In this document: positions 2,906 through 64,000 of the stretch, piece after piece
Numbering within the stretch: the first letter of the stretch is position 1
How the letters are laid out: each line of letters opens with the position of its first letter
Source: Antennarius striatus
Taxonomy: Eukaryota; Chordata; Actinopteri; Lophiiformes; Antennariidae
DNA length: 64,000 nucleotides
Reading direction: 5' to 3'
NCBI RefSeq assembly: GCF_040054535.1
Contig: NC_090780.1
Span: 3,120,001 to 3,184,000, forward strand
Made by a program: the position numbers and the translations under genes
Notes under the pieces: generated by a model
Seen by the model: the letters and a program-made list of their open reading frames with translations, nothing else
What the model was told of the DNA's origin: nothing
Databases searched by the model: none

Positions 2906-5900
2906 GTTTATCGCCAGTAATTGTGCCCAAAGTCTCCACATCCATCCAGGAGTTGGACGGAGAGCTCAGCCCAACGCGGTGCTGGAGAAAGTGTTTACAT
3001 CCATCACAAAGGTTGGCTCGCTGTTCTTTATTATAATAAAATAATAACGTAGCAGCGGCGGTTCGTTGATCGGATATTGTGTCACCACTCATGACAGAAT
3101 GAGACATTTGGTTACACTTAGAGTCGGTCATGTGAGTGAAAAATGTGTGCTTTAAGGGACTTCCACATTATTATGAGAAATCTGGGTTTCACATTCATCT
3201 TTCAGTCTGACGTGAACATTTTTCAGGAATCAGAAACTTCTAATCCCAAAGATTTGATACGATGAGACGCAGCATTATTACTACTGTGAGAAAGAATCTT
3301 CAGAAGTATGCACTGGTTTTCCGTGTGTATCAGGGACTAAAAGCGTGTATGGGTGTGTGATGCTGGGTCAACGTGTTTCTTCTCGCCGTCCACAGAACCC
3401 AGACGCTCGCCATCTGGAGGGCCTGTCCAAGCAGCTGGACTGGGACATGAGAAAGGTCCAGCGATGGTTCCGACAGCGCAGGAACCAGGACAAGCCCAGC
3501 ACACACACTAAGTTCTGTGAGAGCATGTAGGTTACTACCTATTTTGTTGACCCTTGACCTCTCTACTTGTGGGAGCGCACGGTGGTGTTTCCATAATATG
3601 TTCTTGTATTTCTGTTATTGATTGAAGAATTTGGCTGTTAGATGATCAGGTTTGAACTGAGATTATCGTATTAAATTATCGTATTAAAATGATATGAATG
3701 AAGTTGACGTTGAGGCTGCTGTTGTTGATGTTTCTTCTGACTTTTGCGTTCTGTTTTCTGGGTCCTAATTCAATGTCTTCTGTGCAGGTGGAGGTTTACA
3801 TTTTATTTGTGCATATTTATCTATGGCTTGCGCTTTCTGTGGCAGGTGAGCATTCCCTCGGACTGTTGTCCGATTGACCGGGAATATTTTTGTCATGTAA
3901 AACATTGTTGATGCATTTAATTATCCCGTTGATTTTCCTTTAGTCTCCATGGATGTGGGACACACGACATTGCTGGTACGGTTACCCCTATCAGGTACGA
4001 TTGCAGGTCTTCACTTCCATTTGACTTCAGATTTGTCAGGCATGAAGACTTACGTCTGTATTTGATCACCTGATTTTGTCACCTGATAAACTGGTATGTG
4101 GTGTTATTTGTGCAAAGCTATGCAGAATTGAAGCTTTTATCCTCTAAAATGAAGGTAAATAAAAGTAGAAGCATTGTCAGTATGTTTGCTTTGCTTCACT
4201 GTATTTTCTTTCAACTTAATGCAAACATTTTACAAAAGCAATCCAACAAGAATTCTATCATCTAGATATCCCATTATTCCAGTTGATCCCTCCTGTTAAT
4301 CATCCACAGCGTCCATCGTCTAAAGCAGGGGTGTCAAACTCTTTTTCACCAACCACCACATCAGCATAATATCTGATTTAACTTGTAAATGTAACTCAAT
4401 GTAATGTAAAATAAATGTAACTAATCATTAATGTTAAATAACTTTGTTTATTACTTATTTAAGTCACAAACATCACTGTTGCACAAAAAAAGGTTTGTTT
4501 CTCTGTTATAAAAAACCCTTAAACCCACAGAACTCCATCAATCAAGGATCAAACTATCAGTGAATTAACTTTGTACAAAATGTTTTTGTTAATGTGAAAT
4601 GAGCTTAATTACTGCATTGTGGGAAATTGTAGTTGTGCTTAAAGCACACTTTTGTCCCATTTATTTTTTAGACACTCTGACCTTTTATGCTCTCGTGGGC
4701 CACATAAAATGATGTGACGGGCCACATTTGGCCCCCAGGCCTTGAGTTTGACACATTGTGGTCTAAATGTTTCTATGAAATCAGTGACAGTGGGTCGAAT
4801 CTGTCCCCTCATACTTACTGCTGAAGTAACTTTGGGACGGTGGGGGTCAGAAGTCACGGTTTACGCTCAGTAACTCGTGACGCCGGCGACATTAACGTTA
4901 ATGAATGGAACTGTTATGTGAAGTGACTCTGGCTCCGCTCTGTGCTCAGGTCCTGACCCCGGGTCTTTACCACTACTACATGACGGAGCTGTCCTTCTAC
5001 TGGTCGCTCATGTTCACCCAGTTCACCGACATTAAGAGAAAGGTGAGGGCAGCTCCATCTCACCCTGAACGCGCCACAGCTGCCACGCCCTTCAGTCGTG
5101 TGTGTACTAATCCTCGTTTTTGCAGCGACAGAGTGTGTGTGCTTGTGTGGGAATTGAAGGTGCTGGTTTGTTTCTAAAGGCCTCGTGGTCGTGTTGATTT
5201 CAGTCACATGTTTGCATTTTTGAAAAAAGGGGGCGGGAACGCCTGTGAACGCTTTGTGTGTCCAGCATGAGGGAACCCACCACCGTCATGTGATGGAGCA
5301 CGACTAATTCTATTAGAATTCAGAATACCAAAGTATTAGAGCCGGGGTGGGTTACAGACACAGACGTTGGCTTCACATGTTTCATGTTGCCGATACAAAA
5401 GGGGGCCGGTGTTTGTCAGAGTCCATCTGGATGACACCAGGCTCTGAATGGACACTTCAGGGTCGCGATCATCTGATTGTTTCAAAGAAAAAAAGGCTTA
5501 CCGCTGTTTATTTCTTGGTCTGTTTATTTTCTTTCTTTCCTTTTTTTAACTTAACTGAAAGGTGGAGCACGTTTTGGATGTAGCTCCTGGAGAAAGCCAT
5601 CATCATTGAGACTGCGTTTCTTAAATATCTATAAAACACATACTGTCAGTCCAAAGGTTAGGGTTTAATTGCTCCCTTTTTATGATAGTCAAACTATCCA
5701 GCCTTGTAAAAGCTCCAAACCCTCTCAATTGTGATTTTTAAAAAAAAAATCATGCATACTATACCTGTGTATTAATTAATTTTATATAAGTTTATAAGTG
5801 TTAAGTATGAAAAGAAATGCAGAAGTCACACCCAAACGCGAGCTGCGTCTTTACTCTGTGAAGGAGGACACTATCCGGTCTCAGCCAACGTATCCGTCAG

Positions 5901-8900
5901 TATTAACGGTTTTTATCTTGGATTTTTCTCGTGTGTGAAAAAAAAAAATGTGGACAGAGCGACGACTCGTATCTTAAACATTTGTGGACTTGGTTTCACA
6001 AATCCGCTGTGTGGGACCGAGAGGGAATAAATACATGGTAGCTGACAGGGAAGGTTTTTTTCTTCTTTTTACTTTTTTAGTGTTTCTTGATGTTCCTGCT
6101 GCTTTAGAGACACACTGATCATTAAATATTCATGTTATTGATAGATTGTGGAAATGCTGAACAACTTAAAGATTTGGATTCTAAATCTTTTAGTCCAGAT
6201 GTTGACTGGATCCACCGTTCCAGTCAGCTGCCGTCGGCCCACGTGACTTTCCTGTCAGAAACGCGCGTCTCCTGTCTTCCTCGTCTCTCTTCGGCCGTTC
6301 TACCTGTCAGTGTCAGATCTCAGAGTCACATTCAGTTTATTTCAGTTTATTCTGTCAGCTTCCTCTGAAACGTCGTTACGAAACAGCAGTGATGAAATCG
6401 GTACAAACTAGGGAAGCAACGTGTGGAGGAAACATTCGAATCAAGTCTGGCACAATATCAGATGTTCATTCTGTGACTGTCGTCGTGTACAGCCACCAGT
6501 CAAAGTCAACTTTAACTTTATTTATTAGATTGGTTTTTTTAACAAATATATGTAAAATACAGGTCTATGGAAATTCACATAAACATTTTATTGTTAAAGT
6601 TTGAAGCTTTTGTCCAATAAAGAGGGATGTCTGTGACCCCTATCTCAGATAAGTGGTAAAAGATGGATGATGGATGGATGAACTACTGTCCTTCATTAAC
6701 GGCTGGGAGCGAAACTGTGTGACTGAATTAACTTTTTATGATGAAGCTGCTGAAGAAGATGAGTAATGGTCGGGAGCTTGGAGAACGGTGTTAATTATGG
6801 ATGAATGTTGGGGATTATTCTAAGGATTTTTTTGAGGTGGGGGGGGGGGTCATCTGTCATCTGCCCTCCTTAGTTGAGGTGAGTGGGTTGATCCCCTGCA
6901 GTGGTGGGGCTTCCCACCCCCTTCTGGAGTGACAGTTGTGTGATTTGGGTTCTTTGTCCTGATTGGTCGACCGGTCGATCCCGACCAGAGATGCATCGTT
7001 CCGTCATCTTTGTCTTTAACCTGGGCTTTCTCTTCCATTTAGCACTTACTTTGGTTTTCTTTATTTCAAATCTTTTTTGTATTTTTACTGACATTATTTT
7101 TCGAATAAGTTTTAAACATAATTTGCTGTTTAAACATAATCCACTGTCTCATGAAAATGTGACTGAATGAAACATGAATTTGTCGAGTCTGTATATCATT
7201 CTCTATTAATTATTCTATTCTCTTGTTAAAAAAATAGAAATTGTGTGATTTCCAACTTAAATGTTAATACATCATAACAACCAGAGCTTACTTTCCCTTC
7301 ATTTTAATACCATCTTTAATTAATCGAAGCATAGCTGTATTTTCCTCTGACTAAATTTCAGGAAGTTTTTTCTAAAATGATTTCTATCAAGCTATGTTTT
7401 TATTTTATTTATTTTATTTTATTTAACACTTTCGTCTACCTTTTACGGTTTTTTTTTTTTTCATTCATGACTGTTCCGTAGCAGTGAGAGCCGTCGGGGA
7501 CAGAAGAGAAGGTTTGTGTCTCCTGCTGACCTTTTCTGTCCCGTTTATAATTTCAGGACTTCTTAATCATGTTCATCCATCATCTGGCTACAGTCGGCCT
7601 CATCGGTTTCTCCTACGTCAACAACATGGCGAGGGTGGGGAGCCTGGTGATGTGCGTCCACGATGCCTCTGACTTCGTGTTAGAGGTGGGTTGAGGAACA
7701 CTGCAATTCCAAAAGAAATCTACTGTATTTACATATTTATGGTCATTTCTTTAAACATACTGAGTAAAGTTTGATTTTTTTTTTGACATTCTTGTCATTT
7801 TAACACCGATTCTCTCCAAAAAGTTCTTACAGCGCACTTAAAAGGTTATTTACAGCTTTCCTTAAAATAGACATGTTCTAAAAACCAGTTAATGTTTAAA
7901 TCCTGTCTGAACACAAACACAAAACAGGAGACAAGAATAATTAAGACCTGACAGTCGTCCACACCCGGTGTGAAAAATCACAGGAGGTCACCTTCACACG
8001 ACTTGGTCACATGACAAGCATGTGACCTGAGATGTAAAATGTAATGTCCAGTGAAACACCACTGAGGTTAGCGCCAAACAAAGCCAATGTGCAGTATCTG
8101 CAAAGCTGACAATTCAGAGCATCGGATTATATATCTAATAAAATTAGATATACAGTATATGTAAGTAAAACGTTTCTGTGTGAATAGAGGAGAGGGAAAC
8201 GAACTGCAGGCCTGTTTTAGTTTGATTTAAGTTTTAATACTGCTCTTTGTTTTACTACTTTGTTTTACTTTCACTGTGTTGAAAACATCAAACTAGTTAT
8301 ACATTTTTTAAAAAAAATGAAAACTCTTTTCTGAGTTTACGAGACTTTTCTGATCCAAAATTAACCTGTAAAGAAAAATTCAAGCCAAACAGCTGCTATT
8401 TCAGAGCTTCACCCTGAATGTTTGGAGTCCATCTCTTCGGCTCCAGAAGACGTTTAACAGTTTAGTTCGGAGAGACGACGTGACAGAATGACGGCAGATG
8501 CTACACCTTCCTTTAGTCCTTGGAATTTAAGCCCCTCCTCCGCCCGTCACCCATTGATGGACGGTGGGCCTTCCTCCTACAATAGATCGTCCTCCCTGTG
8601 CTTGACGGCTTTATAACAACCCTCTTAAAACAACTGGAATGAAAACCTTGACATTCAGGTTAAATGAGACCATTCCTTTCGGAGGATGTTGTGTGAACAC
8701 AGGTTTAAACACACTTTGTGGTCAGCAGAGCGACGCTACCTGGTCAGTCCGGCTCATGTGACTCCTGTGCCTCAGGTCATGTGCTCGTCATGAGACCTCC
8801 GAGGTTGATTTCTCCCACTGACTGTTATAAATGAATACATTTAACAGACCTTGATGGTGAGACGTCTTTTTTGATTTATTGTAGTTGAATTCTGGAATGA

Positions 8901-14325: not shown

Positions 14326-14835
14326 CTGTTTTCACACAAGTTGACGGAAAAAAACTATTTAACGACCTGGAGAGTCCTGTGTGTTAATCTGTCTTCTGTC
14401 GAATCACTTTAATTTGTCTTTTCTTACCTTTTCTTTTAAATTGATGTCTTGTATTGTCCAAGTACTCCTCAATGTCAGCTCCCCAGCCTGCAGTTAGCAT
14501 CAAAGTTAAATGTCGTTCGCTTTAATAAACTACGGGAAGCCGGAGGAGACATTTCTGCTGGAAAAAACAGCAGCACGCCACCTATTGGCCTGGAGTACAA
14601 TAATCACTGTTGATGTAGCGCTGTGCGATAATTCTATACTTACGTAAAAAAATCAGATGATCTTTGAGTTTTAATATTACTTTAATTAGACATAATTGAT
14701 ATAAAATAAATAAGTTGCACATTCTATGCTTATTAAAAATAAAGACTATTAAACCAGAATCGTATTCGTTCTGTTCTGACTGGAACCCACCGATGTTTCA
14801 GCCCGGACCCATTTCGGAGTTGCACACCCTCAAAT
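14326..14835. promoter_or_regulatory. Head-to-head promoter region of cox14 (-) and bcdin3d (+)
   Basis: The cox14 non-coding exon should end at 14326 (donor on the reverse strand) and the bcdin3d ATG is at 14836, so both transcripts must start inside about 0.5 kb. Divergent housekeeping genes this close normally share a bidirectional promoter. No TATA box was identified. Start sites are inferred from gene layout only. Confidence 0.55.
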
Positions 14836-15807
14836 ATGGCAACATGCTCGCTCGGTAACGACGCTGCCGATGAAGCGAACGATCCAGGAGCTGCTAGTTT
14901 TGGGAACTTTATAAACTATTACACATTCAACCCTCCCGAGAACCGCCTGAGTCTGATTCCAGCCACACTCCTGCAGGATTTAGGCTTTGGTGACGGCCGT
15001 CACCCCACGGAGATCCTGGACGTGGGCTGTAATTCAGGGGTATGCGATTCTGGGATGGGGAGGATGTGATGCTGAGGGCGATCGAGCAAATTTTGCAGAA
15101 TAAAGTTTGTTATCATAAAGAAGTTGTATTTAATACTACCTCTCCACACAAATCAATGTATTTTTAACGTGAAATCTGACTTGTCTCCTTGTGAACGGCA
15201 GGAACTGAGTATAGCCTTTTACAAACATGTGGTGCAGCAGCCTGTGTGCGAACTGGAGTCTGATCAAACCCACGTCCACCTGCTCGGCTGTGACCTGGAT
15301 GACGTCCTCATCCATCGGGCTCAGCAGGCGAACCCACTGCCGTGCAGCATCACCTTCCTCCAGCTTGACGTCATGAAGGACGCGGAGCAGCTGCAAGATT
15401 ACCTCCAGCAGCGCGGCTGCTCGTGTTTCCACGTGTGTCTGTGTCTGGCGGTCACCATGTGGGTCCACCTGCACCACGGGGACTCCGGCCTCCTGCGGCT
15501 CCTCTCCCACCTGGCCTCCATCAGCCAGCACCTCCTGCTGGAGGCTCAGCCCTGGAAGTGTTACCGCTCTGCAGCCCGGCGGCTGAGGAAGCTGGGCCGA
15601 GCAGACTTTGACCACTTCAAGGCCCTGAAGATCCGTGGGGACATAGCGGGACACGCCAGGGAGCACCTGGAAAGACACTGTGGAATGGAGCTCATCCAGA
15701 GCTTTGGAAGCACTACATGGGACCGAGAGCTACTGCTCTTCAAAAAGAGATGTGAAAAAGAGGAGTTTTCATCTGAGGCAGAGGATCAGCAGGGGGATGA
15801 GTTGTGA
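14836..15807 (+). CDS. bcdin3d: RNA 5'-monophosphate methyltransferase BCDIN3D
   Basis: SAM-dependent methyltransferase of the Bin3/MePCE family that methylates the 5' monophosphate of small RNAs (cytosolic tRNA-His, pre-miRNAs in mammals). Two exons, 14836-15039 and 15202-15807, join in phase 0 across a 162-bp intron (donor GG/GTATGC, acceptor GGCAG/GAAC) to give 269 residues; human is 292. Exon 1 carries the family N-terminus (FGNFINYYTFNPPENRLSLI) and SAM motif I, LDVGCNSG, which ends exactly at the splice site. Exon 2 starts ELSIAFYKH, then has the acidic motif II (GCDLDD), the VTMWVHLHHGD segment and the Bin3 C-terminal hallmark QPWKCYRSAARRLRKLG. The tail after WDRELLLF is short and acidic. 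No missing key residue was seen. The start is the first ATG before the conserved region. Confidence 0.96.
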
Positions 15808-21600: not shown

Positions 21601-24600
21601 AAAACCTCTTGATCCGAACGTCTTACAAATCAAGCTTTAACTACAGAAGTCCTTCTGCTGAAGTGTGACACAACCTTTAACACTTTATAACTAGTTTAGT
21701 GTGAAATTATTGATGAGGAAAACAAAACACTGACTTAAAATAAGCCGACATATTTAATAAAAAGTTAACTTCCTGTGTTTAAAATAAATTCAGTCACTGT
21801 TCAAAGTCACTTCAACGTTCCATCTTCAGACTTGAGAGAAGACGACGCCTCTCTTGGCTTCTAGCCATAGGTCATATTTACATTATTTAAAATTCACATT
21901 TAGTACGTCTAGTTTGACAACTTTCTCTTGTTTGTCAGAAGGAAACCAGAATTTGTTAAGTGAAATGCTGTGAGCATTCTCATTGGTCTAAAATCATTGC
22001 ATAGTCATTCGATCAATTTGTTAGCAAACACACTTAAGTTAGTTCAATTTTCCGTCACGGAAAATTGAAATTCCGTCCCGTCTCTCTGCCTACCTGCACG
22101 TCCGTGGCGAGGGTTTCGTACGTGTCCTTGAGGCAGTGCCAGTTCTGTCGTCCCAGAGTGAGCGCCACCCCCGGCAGGCTGAAGGCACAGTGTTTGGCTA
22201 TCTCTGTGTCCACCGTCTGGGCCCGGGTCGGGTCCGTCATCGAGAGGTACTGGTCCAGCAGCTGCTGGGGGATGACGTTCTGGAGACAGGAGGAACATCA
22301 GCGCACGGGGAAGAGGTAGTTTAGTCCACGCCGTTCAGTATCAGCTGTGAGGGTCTGATCAATACCTGTACAAAGCTTTAACTGACCTGGACCTTCGGTC
22401 TATCCTCCGGTACCGGGCTGTGAGCAGAATTCTCCTTCACCTCCTCCTCCAATCTCTCTATTAGTTCAGACGCCTGCACACAGAATCACGTTCACGGTTA
22501 AGAAATAAGTTGTAATCGATCATAACAGTCAATCCACATAACCTACAGCAGCTCAAGCTACACAATAAGAGCTCAAATATTTCCTACCAGAACAGGGAAA
22601 TCAGGAGGACATTCTTCCTGGTCCGGTTCTTCCTCCACAGGCTCCGTCTGCGTCTCCTCGTCTCCTTGCTCCTGGATGGGATTCGACTCAGCGTCCGGAG
22701 GAGTTTCGACTGTTTGCTCCTCCGCTGTCGGACTCTCGTCGGTTTCTGATTGGATCTCCACGGACTCGCCGTCGGGCGTCGGATCGGCGTTGGTCTCAGG
22801 CTGCTGCTCCTCCTCTGGATGGGGTTCAGTCAGGCTGTCGTCTGTTGGACTGTCATCCGCCGGGCTGTCCAGCTGGGCTGCCTTCAAAGCCGCTGACAGC
22901 ACCTGGACTTGAGCTGGAGGTCAATTCACACACAAACTTACTGCAGGTGAACAAAATCTACGCTCATCATATATAGTCTGGCTCTTGAGGCCTACCTTGG
23001 ACATCAGGGTCATCCAGGTGGGGCTGCAAACGGTCTAAGACCATTTGGATCTGATCGCTGGTTGCTTTGCCGGGGCTGGACTTAGACTCAGGACAAGTAT
23101 TTTCAGGTTGCTCCTTGTCCTTGTTCTCGTTCTCCTCCACAGATGTCTGACAGCTGAGCATCTCCAGCTCCCCGCTGATGTCTGGCAGAGGAGATCTCCA
23201 ATAGTGGAAAGAATTAAAGTTCTCGTCTGTGTGCTCTGATTCTTTTGTGTTCTTAGTGTTGTTGCTGGTTGTGGGGCTGGTGTTGCTACAGGAGAGCGCT
23301 TGAGAGAAGCTGCTGAACATCTCTCTAGGGGCAGAGTTGTGGCTGTCATCAAAGTGCATTTCCTCTGTGTCAGCTGTCAGCGCGTGCTCTGGAGACGGCG
23401 TGGCACGGCCGTCCTGGTTCGGAGGCGTGTGAGTCACGGTTCTTTCTGTGCGGCAGCTGCTGATGTCCGAGCAGTTCAGAGAGTTGAGGGAGAGGTCGCT
23501 GAAATGTGGGGCAAAAAGGATAGAAATAATTAGAAAACAGAATAATCACGAGATTTTTTAAACTTCAGCACATATATCAATATTTGCGAACTCAGAGTGT
23601 AATTTGAGACATTTAAGAGCAAAAAGCTAACTGAGGAAAAGGAACTGTGTGTGGTGTTAAAGCATGTGGTTTTCTGTGCCTCCAGCAGTGTCCAAACAAA
23701 CTGAAAAGAATCGAGTGATTTATCAAAGTGAAACATCAGCTGTAAAATGCGTGCTAAGGTTAAGGTCAGGCGGTCCTACTTGTCCAAAGTACACCGGGGG
23801 ACTTCTAGTAGGGCGCCGTCCTCCCTGAAGTGAAAACCTGTGCTGGAGGGGTTGGCAAAGGTGGAGATGAACCGACCTAGAGACTGAAAAGCAGCTTGTC
23901 GCACCTAAAAGTGTGGGGAAAAAAATATTATGTCAAGTGTGTACAATAATTTGAATATAATTTCTTCTTCAACAGTGTAAAAAAACAAAAATATATGATC
24001 AAATTTAAGATAAAGCAAAGTACATCAAGACGACATACACGGTGGTGAGGAAAATACACATTTAGGATGCAATTCAGAGCAAACACTGCTCTACTTTCAT
24101 CACAGATCAGAGGAAGTTACACACACCATGTGAACATCTTACCCAACGAGACTGGTCACTAATGAGGCTGATGAACAAGGGGGACAAATTTGTGCGTCGT
24201 ACTTCTGGAGAGGTGGAGTTGGAAACCATCATGAAACACTCTGCACAGGCCTTCCTGATGCCCCACAGACTGTCTGAGCACAAGTCGAAGAACTTGGGCA
24301 TCTACGTGAAAAACAGAAGATCAATCAAACTCCACACGAATAAAACGACTTTCAACAGCAGGAAACAAACAAACAACTGGCCTGATAATGGCCAATGTCA
24401 CTACACTGCAGTCACACACAGCTGACTGAACACATTATCCTAAGTCATATTCAGCCAGAATAGTTCGTTTTAAATAAATAAGTTCCTCACCAGTAGCTTT
24501 TCTGTGGCTTCCTGACCCACAATCGAACAAAACTCTCCAAAATTGGCTGCGCAGACCTGAAATCAATAACAAACAATAAATAAGGAAGGAAAGGAGAAGT

Positions 24601-58905: not shown

Positions 58906-58938
58906 CATTTGACTATTCAATTGTTTTACCACCAACAT

Positions 58939-59556
58939 TGTCACGACCCGGCTCGTGAGCCATGACAGAAAGTGGAGATACGCAGTCTTTCAGGAAAAAT
59001 TAATACATTTATTTTACAAAAATAACTGCAAAGCAAACATCTGTCAATTATGAGGTGTGTAAATCAGTATTATCAGTGTGTCTGTAAATGGATGAATGGA
59101 AGATGGTGGGTGTTGCATGAAAGAAACTAACAAACAGAAGCCAACCAAACACAAACATGGTGCCGTCGTCAGGATCAGGTGAGAAGAGCAGAGCAGAGAG
59201 GGAGCCAACCAAGGAAGGTCTGAGACAGCTGATCTTAAATTACCTCACTGGGAGACTGGCCAGGCTCCCAGTTAGAGGGCTGCGACTACTTGCTGATTAC
59301 CGGCAGAATGCAATCACAGACAGACACACCCACCACATACACACACAGCAGCAGGTCCTGCCATGCAGGAGGCGGTCACACCCCCTTCCATAAGAACGGG
59401 GTCCCAACCCCGGAACCACATACTCCCCACTATACCCAATTAATTTTAACTAACAGAACTACAAACAGAAAAGTATTTCAGCAAAAATGCGTTATACCAA
59501 AGGAAAACAACACTGACCTGATGCTTGTCATCCACTGTTACTCAACCCTGCCACCA
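58939..59556 (-). mobile_element. Putative 3' LTR of the gypsy element
   Basis: The segment is bounded by TG (58939) and CA (59556) and has the end TGTCACGACCCGGCTCGTGA. On the reverse strand it is preceded by the purine tract GAGGGGGAGGGG (59558-59572), placed like a polypurine tract, and contains AATAAA (reverse complement at 59008-59013) near its far end. The second LTR copy is not in the window, so both boundaries are inferred from motifs. Confidence 0.6.
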
Positions 59557-59666: not shown

Positions 59667-59843
59667 TTACTGATAAGGCGCTCTGGACAAATCGTCCGCC
59701 ACCACATTGTCCGAGCCCTTAATATGTCTATACTGCAGGGAGTTAAGAAAAGTTAAGGGGTTGTGGTCAGTGTAGACCACCACAGGCACAACACCAGAAC
59801 CTACATACACATCAAAATGTTTTAATGCCCATATGGTTGCATA
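59667..59843 (-). pseudogene. Gypsy RNase H remnant, fused in frame to the captured coiled coil
   Basis: ATIWALKHFDVYVGSG, YTDHNPLTFLNSLQ and HIKGSDNVVADDLSRAP are Ty3/gypsy RNase H and end-of-RNase H motifs. The stretch normally found between the NSLQ and RHIKG motifs is missing, so about 20 residues were deleted in frame. The 78-codon frame 59667-59900 begins in the DLG5-like part (ARKERTEAIIQRDQLLREY) and passes straight into RNase H. The catalytic N-terminal half of RNase H and all of integrase are absent. Confidence 0.8.
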
Positions 59844-60530
59844 CTCTCGGAGCAACTGATCCCTCTGAATGATGGCCTCCGTCCTCTCCTTGCGGGCCAC
59901 ATCTCCTCCCGAACCATCTCAGTGTCTTTGCAAGCCTGACTCAGGTCCTTCTGGGCCTCGGCCCTGTCTTTCACCTCGTGGCAGTATTTCTCCAGCAGCT
60001 CGTTCTTCTCGCAAATCGCCTTGTCGTGGTCCACCAGTGACGAGTTCAGCTTCTGTTTCAGTGCCTCCAGCTCTTCACTGGCCACCCTTCTCTCTGAGGA
60101 GATGTTCGTCAGTCGGGCCTCCGCTGCCTCCAGCTCCGTCTGCAGCTTGTCAAGCTCGTTGATCACCTGGTCGCGCTCGCTCATTATAAGACGGCACTTG
60201 TTGAACACAGAGTCCCTCTCTACCTTATACTTCTCTCAGTCCTTGGCTGCCTTTAACTGCAGGTTCTTGTAGCGCGTCACTTGTGACTGCAGGTGCTCCA
60301 TCTCCCTCCGCAGCTTCTTGTTTTGAGCTGAGGACTTGTTCAGCTCCTGCTGCACTGAATCAAACCTCCTCTTGGAGATGGAATACTGCTGCTGGTAGTG
60401 CATGGCCGAGTCTCGCTGTTGGAGCAATGCAGCCATCTGCTACTGCAGCTTTTGGTTCTCCTCGTCGACCTGCTCCAGGCGGCTCAGGTCCGCATTGTGA
60501 CTGGCCACCACAGGAGGCGGCGGAACGCCA
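59844..60530 (-). pseudogene. DLG5-like coiled-coil sequence captured inside the gypsy element
   Basis: About 690 bp of coiled-coil coding on the same strand as gag. Diagnostic strings: LIMSERDQVINELDKLQTE, LLEKYCHEVKDRAEAQK, QACKDTEMVREE, QQELNKSSAQNKKLRREMEH. These resemble the N-terminal coiled coil of the membrane-associated guanylate kinase DLG5, as I recall that family; other long coiled-coil proteins are less likely. The frame runs through without any intron and is broken by a TAG (60440-60442), a TGA (60236-60238) and a frameshift near 59905. In vertebrate DLG5 this region is spread over several exons, so an mRNA origin is inferred. Borders: protease-like coding ends near 60531-60545; RNase H starts near 59843. 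It replaces the reverse transcriptase. Confidence 0.75.
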
Positions 60531-61743
60531 GCCCTCCTGCAACACCATTCCCTAAAATTAGTGTGATACCCTCAATTGGCAGCGCCGGACGCATGCCAAC
60601 AGTCACGCGGCCTTCAAACAGGTCGCAATACAGCATAACGTTATGCAACAGCACCTGCAGAACTTTCATGCCCATTCCCAAAACAGGAACAGAGCACCCT
60701 GTGTCACTTTCCTCTGAAAAACGGCAGCACTGAAGCCTGGATGAATGAGTAAAAGGTAGCAGTGTCCCGTAGTATCTTAACCAGCACCTTGACACCACTT
60801 CCAACCAGGGAAACAAAGCCATCGGACACAAAAGGCAGAAAAGAGTCAAGCTCACCAGCTTTTACCTGAATCTTTACACTTGCCGCATCCACAGCAGACA
60901 ATATAGGCATCGACACGGCCAGACACGCACCCTTTGCCTGTCCAGCAGGACCATTCTGTTTAGATTTATTTTTAAAAGCATAACAGTCTGCTTTCCAATG
61001 CTCTTTTTTATGACAATAGTTACAGATCTTATCTGAACTATGCATGCCACGATCTTTCAACTCAGATATACCTGGAGGAACAGCAGAATATGTGCCTGGA
61101 GTAACAGAAGAGTATGCACCAACTGCATCAGCACTCTCCCAAAAACCAGCACCACGAGTGCGTAATCCCCCAAAATTACGCTTGTGCGTTAAGACAAAAT
61201 CATCTGCAATAGCAGCTGCTGCAGCAGCAGTTTTCACCTTCTGATCGCTGATATACGTGGCAATATTCTCCGATACGGAAATCTTAAACTGTTCCAACAC
61301 TACTAAGTCACACAGCTGATCAAAAGTGTTCACCTCCAATGCAGAACACCAGTGCGTAAAATGCGCGGTCAGATCACGGGCAAATTCAAGGTACATCTGC
61401 TTAACTCCCTCCACATCCGAAACCACTGGCGATAAGCCTCGGGGACTCATAGCTCATAAGCTTCCAACACACCTGTTTTAACTGCCGAATAGTCTTGACT
61501 ATCTGCAGAAGACAATGACAAGTAGGCCTCCTGCGCTCTACCTGTCAGTGCGCACTGCAGCATCAATGTGCACGCAGACTCCGGCCACTTCCTTGTGCCT
61601 GCCACACGCTCAAACATTACAAAAAATGTCTCTGGGTCCCTCTCATTAAATTTAGGCAACAATTTCAAGTTACCCAATACATCAAACTTCTCCTCTGTAG
61701 GCACTGTCACTCTCGACAGAACCATCAGCCGACAATGTCCCAC
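60531..61743 (-). pseudogene. Gypsy Gag (capsid, zinc knuckle) and protease remnant
   Basis: Capsid-type motifs LPKFNERDPETFF and LQCALTGRAQEAYL (61447-61743) continue after a stop and frameshift near 61440 into YLEFARDLTAHF, TYISDQKV and DDFVLTHKRNFGG. A CX2CX4HX4C zinc knuckle (CNYCHKKEHWKADC) follows, then an aspartic protease region in two frames; the active-site triad DTG reads DTA. Later protease strings SEESDTGCSVPVLGMGM and RPALPIEGITLILGN are in another frame. Non-functional. Confidence 0.82.
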
Positions 61744-61744
61744 T

Positions 61745-63355
61745 TCTAATTAAATCAAGCTTATTCATTTATGTATTTGTTCAGTTTATTTTCTTCTTTC
61801 CAGACATGTTATTACAACAGACTTCACTTTCATCTGTGTTGAGACATCAGCAACAACATCCGAAAAGAAAAAATAGGGTTGACTGGTAGAAGCCATTGGC
61901 TTATAAGGTTTCCGTCCCCTAAATCATCAACATCTCTCTCATTACAGCACATTGTCAACCAATTCATACATTGCATGACACAAATCAATTTCAATTATTT
62001 TATTTTGGTACATTGTTGTTTTAATCCGTACATTCAGTCCAATAGATGTGCATCTTTGCACACCTCTTTGTCAATTCTTGAGAAGAGTCCAAATTTTGTT
62101 AATGTTCATTTTGTTATTCCTTTCAAGGGTTGTTTCTGGTCAATTGTGTCCTTGTTTACTCAGCATTCCTTTCCTTTCCACTTTCGTAGCAGTCATAACA
62201 TCTTGCATGTACTCAGTTACTGCATAAAGGTTACAGTGACATTTGTTTCACAGGATTGACAACATGAAGTTTAATTCGTCATAACAGTACAGTCCTTTAA
62301 TCATCATTCACGTCAAAAATATAACCTTGCAAAATCATTTTTTAAATGCTTTTTCAAAGGAAGTTAGAGTTCCCATACTCCTAATTTCATTATCCAGTTT
62401 ATTCAAATGTTTGACACCAGTGAACGATAATGAAAATGTTTTGAATGTTGTTCTTGCTTTTTTCTATACAAATGCTGTGTTTTCTCTTAGTTGGTAATTG
62501 GATTCATTAATCTGTATTTGTGATTGTATATTTTGAGGTAAATTGTTATTGTCAGCTTTATACATAAGTTGTACAGTTTTATAGCTTATGATATCATGTA
62601 TTTTCAGTAGTTCAGATTTAATAAATAAGTGGTTTTTGTGAGCTCTATAATGTTCATTGTGATTAATCCTTAAGGCTCTTTTCTGGGTCAGGAGTAAAGG
62701 TTGCAAGCCACTTTTATATGTGTTTCCCCATACTTCAGCACAGTAGTTCAGATAGGGCAGGGTTAGTGCACAATATATTATATGGAGTGCGTTCTGATTT
62801 AATAGTTTTTGGGTTTTCCAGAGTATGGATACACTTCTAGCTAACTTTATTTGCAGCTGTCTTAAATGAGGTTTCCATTTTAGCATCTCATCAATAATCA
62901 CTTCTAGCATTTTAAATTCATTAATCTGTTCAATATCTACATCATTCACCTTAATATTGATTTTATGTTTGCAACTTTTCTTCCCAAATAACATATACTT
63001 AGTTTTGGTTAGGTTCATGAATAATTTGTTTAAATCAAACCATAATTGCATCTTGGCTAATTCCTCGTTTACTGTTTGAGTTAGTTTGTTTATATCATTT
63101 CCTTTGCAAAGGATGGTTGTATCATCTGCAAAGAGTATCATTTTAAGTACCTTTGAAACCTTACATAAATCATTAATGTAAAGTATAAATAATTTTGGAC
63201 CCAACACTGACCCCTGTGGTACCCCACACACAATGTCTAATGTTTTTGATGTCCTCCCGCCCAGAGTGATGTACTGAGACCTCTCATGTAAATGAGAGAC
63301 CTCTCATGAAAATAACTATCCGAGGTGGCTTTAGAGCCATCTTGCCTGTTCAGAC
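61745..63355 (-). mobile_element. 5'-truncated non-LTR retrotransposon nested in gag
   Basis: It splits the Gag coding: the N-terminal part stops at about 63355 and coding resumes at 61743. The reverse strand has the C-terminal half of a reverse transcriptase of the Jockey/CR1/L2/Rex1 type, open without stops from about 63275 to 62464: GVPQGSVLGPKLFILYINDL, the catalytic FADDTT, and a C-terminal thumb-like region. About 700 bp of AT-rich 3' UTR follows. The endonuclease and RT N-terminus are missing. A CATGAGAGGTCTC motif is duplicated at the 5' break (63265-63312). Exact ends and target duplication could not be fixed. Confidence 0.78.
62464..63276 (-). pseudogene. Reverse transcriptase C-terminal fragment (LINE)
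   Basis: About 270 codons without interruption, from QYITLGGRTSK through the polymerase palm (YINDL; FADDTTILCKG) to LPQNIQSQIQINESNYQLRE and a stop at 62464. It lacks a start and the upstream finger and endonuclease regions, so it is a dead fragment, but the absence of stops implies a fairly recent insertion compared with the gypsy host element. Confidence 0.82.
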
Positions 63356-63695
63356 TGAAGATTGCAATTTTTCCACTGCCAGTTGCTTTTCAATTTCTGC
63401 ATTACACTTAATTTTATCACGTTCCAATTGCAACATCAGTATTTCTTTTTGCTGCTCAAATGTTAAACCACCGGCTGCCAATGGCGGAGACAAACCATCA
63501 GAGTTAACTAGACCAGGAGGTTGCTCCGGACCTCCAGCCAAAACACCCATAATATCTCTAATATTATTCTTCAACCGATTGTCAGGAACAACAACTTCAT
63601 AGTGCTCTGCTATGTTTAACAACTGTTCCTTCGTGCACCTGTCCAAAAACTCCTCTGCCAGAGCTTTAACGAAGTCCGATACCTCTGCCATCATA
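63353..63695 (-). pseudogene. Gypsy Gag N-terminal fragment
   Basis: Starts at MMAEVSDFVKALAEEF (ATG at 63695 or 63692), then CTKEQLLNIAEHY and a C-terminal helix rich in charged residues (EKQLAVEKL), the usual N-terminus of fish gypsy Gag proteins. The frame stops at 63350 just after the LINE junction. Upstream, 63700-64000 is the untranslated leader of the element. Confidence 0.75.
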
Positions 63696-64000
63696 CACAA
63701 CAGCTAGAGAATTAATTTTTATTACACAACCCGATACCATAGGCCAAAGCAAGTGCCAACACGGTGCCTACACACAAACAGAGCGCACAATCCCCTCTAT
63801 CTAACCCCCTCTAATCTATCCAGTTCTTACCTTACTCCACTCATCCCTAGTCTTCATGCAGTGACAATGGCAGGTACTTACGCACTCAATACCGATAGCA
63901 CAGAAAAGGCAACCAAATAATGGCAACCTCCCCGAAACTACGGCTGTGCCCCTGAGCAATTGCTCTAACCACGTTCACTACAACACTATGGAAAAAAACC

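What the first reader, a model, noticed from the sequence alone, without database searches (positions are those of the whole stretch)
59667..60545. LTR retrotransposon carrying a captured DLG5-like host coiled coil
On one strand and without intron the order is gypsy protease, about 230 codons of DLG5-like coiled coil, then gypsy RNase H. The downstream border is an in-frame fusion (LLREY straight into ATIWALKHFDVYVG), so the host and element parts were joined in one coding unit, not placed side by side by chance. Host gene capture is known for retroviruses and for a few plant LTR elements; I know of no described fish gypsy element carrying DLG5. The captured frame agrees modulo three with the zinc-knuckle frame of gag, which fits a former Gag-coiled-coil fusion protein.
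Basis: partly seen in the sequence, partly recalled or inferred. Interest (0 to 1): 0.9.

Follow-up and report, generated by a model that had tools for sequence, protein, structure and literature searches.

The report
Fish jumping gene carrying captured dlg5a
In a frogfish-like genome, a retrovirus-like jumping gene picked up a spliced piece of the host gene dlg5a in place of its own copying enzymes and then inserted at least twice with that piece inside; both copies are now broken, so it is a clear but decayed case of a known kind of gene capture.

Summary
On the minus strand, a Gmr1-like Ty3/gypsy element (SCAN-type Gag, protease tail) runs into about 224 codons of dlg5a and then into the C-terminal part of RNase H. 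The host's own dlg5a was found on another contig: three exons cover the same segment, both introns between them are missing from the element, and both borders lie inside exons. A second copy on contig C1 has two LTRs, its own target-site duplication and the same junction bases, so the chimera moved as a unit and is hardly an assembly error. The window copy also has its second LTR, just outside the window, and a 5-bp duplication. DLG5 replaced about 930 codons of integrase, RT and the start of RNase H, so the element was non-autonomous. Border overlaps with relatives (3 nt and 1 nt) fit template switching. Both junctions are in frame in C1. Both copies carry private stops and frameshifts, and substitutions look close to neutral, so no present function is indicated. 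Host mRNA capture by LTR elements is known (maize Bs1, crocodilian ERVs, LTR-mediated retrocopies in zebrafish); this is a new, well-resolved member.

The parts
58934..58938 (.). target-site duplication AACAT (partner copy beyond the window, next to the 5' LTR)
   Evidence: read
58939..59380 (-). 3' LTR; partner 5' LTR at C5:3184521-3184979, outside the window; 88% identical, K2P 0.089
59381..59393 (-). purine-rich tract before the 3' LTR (by eye)
59676..59840 (-). C-terminal RNase H remnant; lacks 58 nt that the C1 copy has
   Evidence: (PF17917, 24.6 bits, just under the 24.8 cut-off)
59841..60509 (-). captured dlg5a segment (residues 332-555 of Antennarius DLG5a), three exons joined without introns
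60236..60238 (-). in-frame TGA in the DLG5 segment (window copy only)
60440..60442 (-). in-frame TAG in the DLG5 segment (window copy only)
60507..60509 (-). 3-nt overlap shared by dlg5a and a family relative at the 5' border
   Evidence: read
60510..60720 (-). protease tail, up to PPPPVV
60704..61453 (-). Gag: SCAN-like capsid part and CCHC knuckle, into protease
   Evidence: (PF02023, 2.6e-11)
61447..61764 (-). Gag, middle part (separate frame)
61765..63327 (-). insert with LINE-type reverse transcriptase, absent from the C1 copy
   Evidence: PF00078, 1.6e-12
63328..63703 (-). Gag N-terminus
63704..64000 (-). 5' leader of the element, continuing beyond the window to the 5' LTR

Best explanation
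This is a decayed, non-autonomous derivative of a Gmr1-like Ty3/gypsy retrotransposon that captured a fragment of spliced host dlg5a mRNA. Shown: intronless dlg5a joined inside one LTR element, two separate LTR- and TSD-bounded insertions with the same borders, absence of integrase, RT and the start of RNase H. Inferred: dlg5a mRNA was packaged with element RNA in a virus-like particle; while copying the element RNA from its 3' end, reverse transcriptase jumped inside RNase H to dlg5a mRNA, copied about 670 nt, and jumped back inside the protease tail. The chimera then moved at least twice using RT and integrase made by full-length relatives, and both copies decayed. Both junctions are in frame, so the young chimera could have made a Gag-protease-DLG5-RNase H fusion, but I see no clear sign that the DLG5 part was kept by selection.
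For: DLG5a identity. Native dlg5a on C11 in three exons with GT...AG introns that the element lacks, and borders inside exons. The native 224-residue segment is 100% identical to Antennarius striatus DLG5a. Second copy C1:19163910-19168432 with two LTRs, TSD TGAC and the same junction bases. Window copy LTR pair and TSD AACAT. Relatives whose RNase H and 3' DNA is 88-91% identical in the matched pieces carry an RT-RNase H region. Border overlaps of 3 nt and 1 nt. No direct repeat of 6 nt or more was found flanking the DLG5 segment. The missing stretch corresponds to roughly residues 555-1486 of the 1562-residue relative P0136.
Against: The 3' overlap is only 1 nt and the exact parent copy is not known, so the microhomology is modest. 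Only two chimeric copies were found, so mobility was low. A DNA-level recombination of a retrocopy into an element cannot be formally excluded. No raw reads were seen. That relatives supplied RT and integrase was not tested.
Confidence: 0.93

Rival explanations
1. A LINE-made processed pseudogene of dlg5a landed inside an older gypsy element (nesting).
For: LINE-type RT sequence is present nearby, inside Gag of the window copy.
Against: The segment is cut at both ends inside coding exons and about 930 codons of pol are gone rather than split. No direct repeat of 6 nt or more flanks it, no poly(A) is seen by eye, and a second LTR-bounded copy has the same borders.
Confidence: 0.03
2. Assembly chimera or mis-join.
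For: No reads were available.
Against: Two loci on different contigs share identical junction bases but differ from each other and from dlg5a by private substitutions and indels.
Confidence: 0.01
3. The DLG5 part was a selected, working domain of a Gag fusion protein that helped the element (for example by oligomerising).
For: Both junctions are in frame in C1, a 1 in 9 chance. In the DLG5 segment all stops and indels are private to one copy. Window-C1 divergence is lowest in DLG5: K2P 0.058 against 0.073 (5' leader), 0.084 (RNase H and 3' UTR), 0.084-0.090 (LTRs), 0.090 (gag/pro) and 0.114 (Gag N-terminus). For all 31 residue changes the replacements are slightly milder than neutral (P 0.02-0.03).
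Against: Private changes are 26 replacing to 8 silent, about the share expected without constraint. Of 15 shared silent changes, the dlg5b-like gene assigns 7 to the native gene, 3 to the element and leaves 5 unclear, against 10 replacements on the element side. For the 25 private residue changes the replacements are not milder than neutral (P about 0.2), and 2 stops fit neutral expectation. Only two copies were found.
Confidence: 0.1

Closest known systems
LTR-mediated retroposition (Tan et al., as summarised in the review PMC5408686; passages read; the original was not seen)
   Same: Host mRNA copied into an LTR element, explained by template switching at short similarities; reported by the review for mosquito, zebrafish and chicken
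   Different: Here the host piece lies between Gag-protease and RNase H, in frame at both ends, and the chimera is present as two separate insertions
Maize Bs1 (named in PMC5408686 passages; details recalled)
   Same: LTR element that carries pieces of host mRNAs
   Different: Plant element with pieces of three host genes; here a vertebrate Gmr1-like element with one
Crocodilian ERVs with captured KIT-ligand and nectin3 (PMC4299795; passages read)
   Same: Vertebrate LTR element carrying a host mRNA; the paper says such capture usually deletes internal viral domains
   Different: Those are retroviruses with long host ORFs and reported purifying selection; KIT-ligand capture cost no domain. Here a gypsy element, a coding fragment, near-neutral decay
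Fish Gmr family of Ty3/gypsy (PMC11117352; passages read)
   Same: That paper lists LTRs of 337-518 bp and about 6.1-6.5 kb; LTR is 442 bp here and Gag has close fish relatives
   Different: Integrase, RT and the start of RNase H are replaced by DLG5

Membership tests
Gmr1-like Ty3/gypsy element | SCAN-type Gag | tested here: met
   PF02023, E 2.6e-11, 43.6 bits against a cut-off of 27
Gmr1-like Ty3/gypsy element | CCHC knuckle in Gag | tested here: inconclusive
   CNYC...C motif visible by eye but PF14787 only E 0.086, below cut-off
Gmr1-like Ty3/gypsy element | Two LTRs and target-site duplication | tested here: met
   Both chimeric copies
Gmr1-like Ty3/gypsy element | Integrase placed before RT | tested here: inconclusive
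   Both are lost here; in relative P0136 the order was read by eye from the sequence (that this order marks the group is recalled)
Gmr1-like Ty3/gypsy element | Complete pol (autonomous) | tested here: not met
   No match to the integrase, RT and RNase H start of relatives (C1 copy); hence a non-autonomous derivative
LTR-mediated retrocopy of a host gene | Introns of the parent gene removed | tested here: met
   Two introns of native dlg5a absent
LTR-mediated retrocopy of a host gene | Host piece inside LTR element sequence, same strand | tested here: met
LTR-mediated retrocopy of a host gene | Short identical bases at the switch points | tested here: inconclusive
   3 nt at one border and 1 nt at the other, judged against relatives, not the exact parent
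LINE-made processed pseudogene | poly(A) tail and direct repeats flanking the retrocopy | tested here: not met
   No flanking repeat of 6 nt or more; no poly(A) by eye

The most novel reading that the evidence does not exclude
A teleost gypsy element used a captured DLG5 coiled coil as a working part of a Gag-protease-DLG5 fusion protein (for example for particle assembly or targeting) while borrowing RT and integrase from relatives.
Probability: 0.1. Interest if true: 0.75.

Novelty: new member of a known kind. Interest (0 to 1): 0.47.

Why it matters
It is a well anchored natural case: parent gene, two chimeric insertions and family relatives all lie in one genome, so capture borders, intron loss, remobilisation and later decay can be read directly. 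It adds a vertebrate Ty3/gypsy example to captures known from retroviruses and plant elements, and suggests that a chimera without RT and integrase could still be mobilised.

Tried and rejected
Nested LINE-made pseudogene and assembly chimera were considered and rejected (see rivals). PDB searches gave no relative: for the DLG5 piece 16 matches at E up to 10, the best E 0.0002 to a designed helical protein; for the RNase H piece one match at E 0.15. Pfam gives no family above its cut-off for the two DLG5 ORFs; the Takusan domain of DLG5a is at residues 132-217 of P0002, outside the captured part. Viral contigs (DLG5 piece, Gag piece) and genome contigs (DLG5 piece) gave no relatives. A protein search limited by length to about 330-1050 residues for DLG5-containing fusions elsewhere gave 7 hits, none listing a retroelement Pfam domain. 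The Gag search gave 18 hits; since the captured part has no Pfam domain of its own, all 18 were compared with two fish DLG5a proteins by BLASTP: the best E was 0.02, so no second species with the fusion was seen. Selection: DLG5 changes against the majority of the 120 listed proteins (isoforms counted apart) are 31 of 202 residues, 25 seen in none of them. Simulation: 2 stops observed, about 2.1 expected for 31 changes; replacements were slightly milder than neutral for all 31 (P 0.02-0.03), not for the 25 private ones (P about 0.2); changes at hydrophobic residues 4 against 4.6-6.9 expected. An excess of G>A among changes that could be assigned (10 of 26) was noted and not pursued; one search guessed ancestral codons before the native gene was known. 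Indels in gag/pro against one family relative: three frame-breaking events are common to both copies, but they can equally be private to the relative, which is itself not in one frame; inconclusive. No paper on DLG5 capture was found (terms dlg5, retrotransposon, captured; 0 papers). Papers: PMC5408686, PMC4299795, PMC11117352, PMC6525542 and PMC3136929 seen as passages; others as search listings only.

Full report
What is there. Stop-to-stop ORFs give Gag pieces at 63350-63703, 61447-61749 and 60704-61453, protease in 60484-60861, a coiled coil in 60236-60439 and 59822-60235, and an RNase H end in 59667-59918. Pfam finds a SCAN domain in Gag (E 2.6e-11) and RT_RNaseH in the tail (E 2.9e-5, 24.6 bits, just under the cut-off of 24.8). 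The Gag query finds 18 proteins at E<=1e-3, the best 63% identical over 91% of the 249 residues; several list integrase, RT and RNase H domains, and those named come from fish. tblastn places Gag and protease of these relatives on the window, and RNase H of the longer ones at 59670-59894.

The host part is dlg5a. Residues 1-212 of the coiled-coil frame match 853 proteins at E<=1e-3. The 120 listed are 1634-2050 residues long, most are named disks large homolog 5, and the best is that of Antennarius striatus, E 4.3e-94. tblastn places the segment at residues 332-541 plus 535-555 of P0002, the break being one small frame-shifting deletion. The last residues before the junction are LLREY; DLG5a goes on with YQARQ, the element with ATIWALKHF.

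The host genome settles the origin. The window is C5:3120001-3184000 of a 548-Mb assembly. The dlg5a query has 8 matches from 6 candidates, all scored: the window, one full-length match on C1 (91%), three pieces on C11 (88-93%), and three pieces on C21 (74-84%). The C11 gene is native dlg5a: its joined 224-residue segment is 100% identical to Antennarius striatus DLG5a, the next best of the 120 being 98.2%. So the host is that species or a very close one; naming it is inference, and so is calling the C21 gene dlg5b. In native dlg5a two introns (GT...AG) split the segment; the element lacks both. The borders do not fall on exon ends: the 5' border lies inside the first of the three exons, and the 3' border 15 nt before the end of the third. 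This is spliced mRNA.

Two insertions. The C1 locus (L010) carries the same order, without the LINE insert, between two LTRs at L010 2910-3351 and 6983-7432 (92% identical, K2P 0.047). The window copy's 5' LTR lies just beyond the window (88% identical, K2P 0.089). Target-site duplications, read, are AACAT for the window copy and TGAC for C1. Junction bases are the same in both. The window copy also holds a 1.56-kb insert with LINE-type RT in Gag, and lacks 58 nt of RNase H that C1 has. The LTR has 53 matches in the genome, a lower bound that includes partial pieces (44 candidates, 40 scored), but only two copies carrying dlg5a were found.

How it arose. Family relatives on C3 and C13 have a similar 3' end (88-91% in the matched pieces) and continue upstream into RT and RNase H. 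At the RNase H border these relatives, dlg5a and the chimera share one base; at the protease border one relative, dlg5a and the chimera share GGT. The captured piece replaces about 930 codons from the end of protease to within RNase H (against P0136). This is what two template switches during reverse transcription would leave, the mechanism that the review PMC5408686 describes for LTR-mediated retrocopies (passages). Packaging of dlg5a mRNA and help in trans from relatives are inferred.

Reading frames and decay. In C1 one ORF (L010 4449-4670) runs from protease into DLG5, and another (3634-3888) from DLG5 into RNase H; both joins are in frame, a 1-in-9 coincidence if random. Over 646 ungapped columns of native, window and C1 dlg5a (26 gapped columns set aside), 585 are the same, 25 are shared by the two element copies against native, 21 are private to the window, 13 to C1, and 2 differ in all three. 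Shared changes are 15 silent and 10 replacing; private ones 6 and 15 (window) and 2 and 11 (C1), each judged singly on the native codon, against 24-28% silent expected at random. All stops and indels of the DLG5 segment are private to one copy. Shared silent changes polarised by the dlg5b-like gene fall 7 on the native gene, 3 on the element, 5 unclear. At all 10 shared replacements the native residue is the fish majority, so they are placed on the element side; the dlg5b-like gene agrees at 7, has the element's base at 2 and could not be read at 1. This fits little or no constraint, with small numbers. Against this, window-C1 divergence is lower in DLG5 (K2P 0.058) than in the 5' leader (0.073), RNase H plus 3' UTR (0.084), LTRs (0.084-0.090), gag/pro (0.090) and the Gag N-terminus (0.114); I have no firm explanation: weak constraint, recombination between family members, or chance.

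Verdict. Confirmed host-gene capture with remobilisation, now decayed; a new member of a known kind.

Noticed in passing
window 61765-63327 (-): Insert with the C-terminal part of a LINE-type reverse transcriptase inside Gag; the C1 copy shows the unoccupied site. The longest direct repeat found near its ends was 7 nt, so no clear target-site duplication.
   Followed up: partly
window 14743-15804 (+): Two adjacent ORFs, the second with a Bin3 methyltransferase domain (PF06859, E 2e-20); the name BCDIN3D-like is recalled, not tested.
   Followed up: partly
window 22970-23545 (-): ORF with a WRNPLPNID domain (PF15017, E 7.9e-11), perhaps an exon of a host gene.
   Followed up: no
L010 and window copies of the element: The DLG5 part is less diverged between the two copies (K2P 0.058) than gag/pro (0.090): possibly recombination among family members, weak constraint or chance.
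   Followed up: partly
L009 about 1505-1520 and L010 about 6966-6982: Bases next to the 5' LTR (TTGGGGCTCGTC on the element strand) resemble a proline-tRNA primer site; recalled motif, not tested.
   Followed up: no
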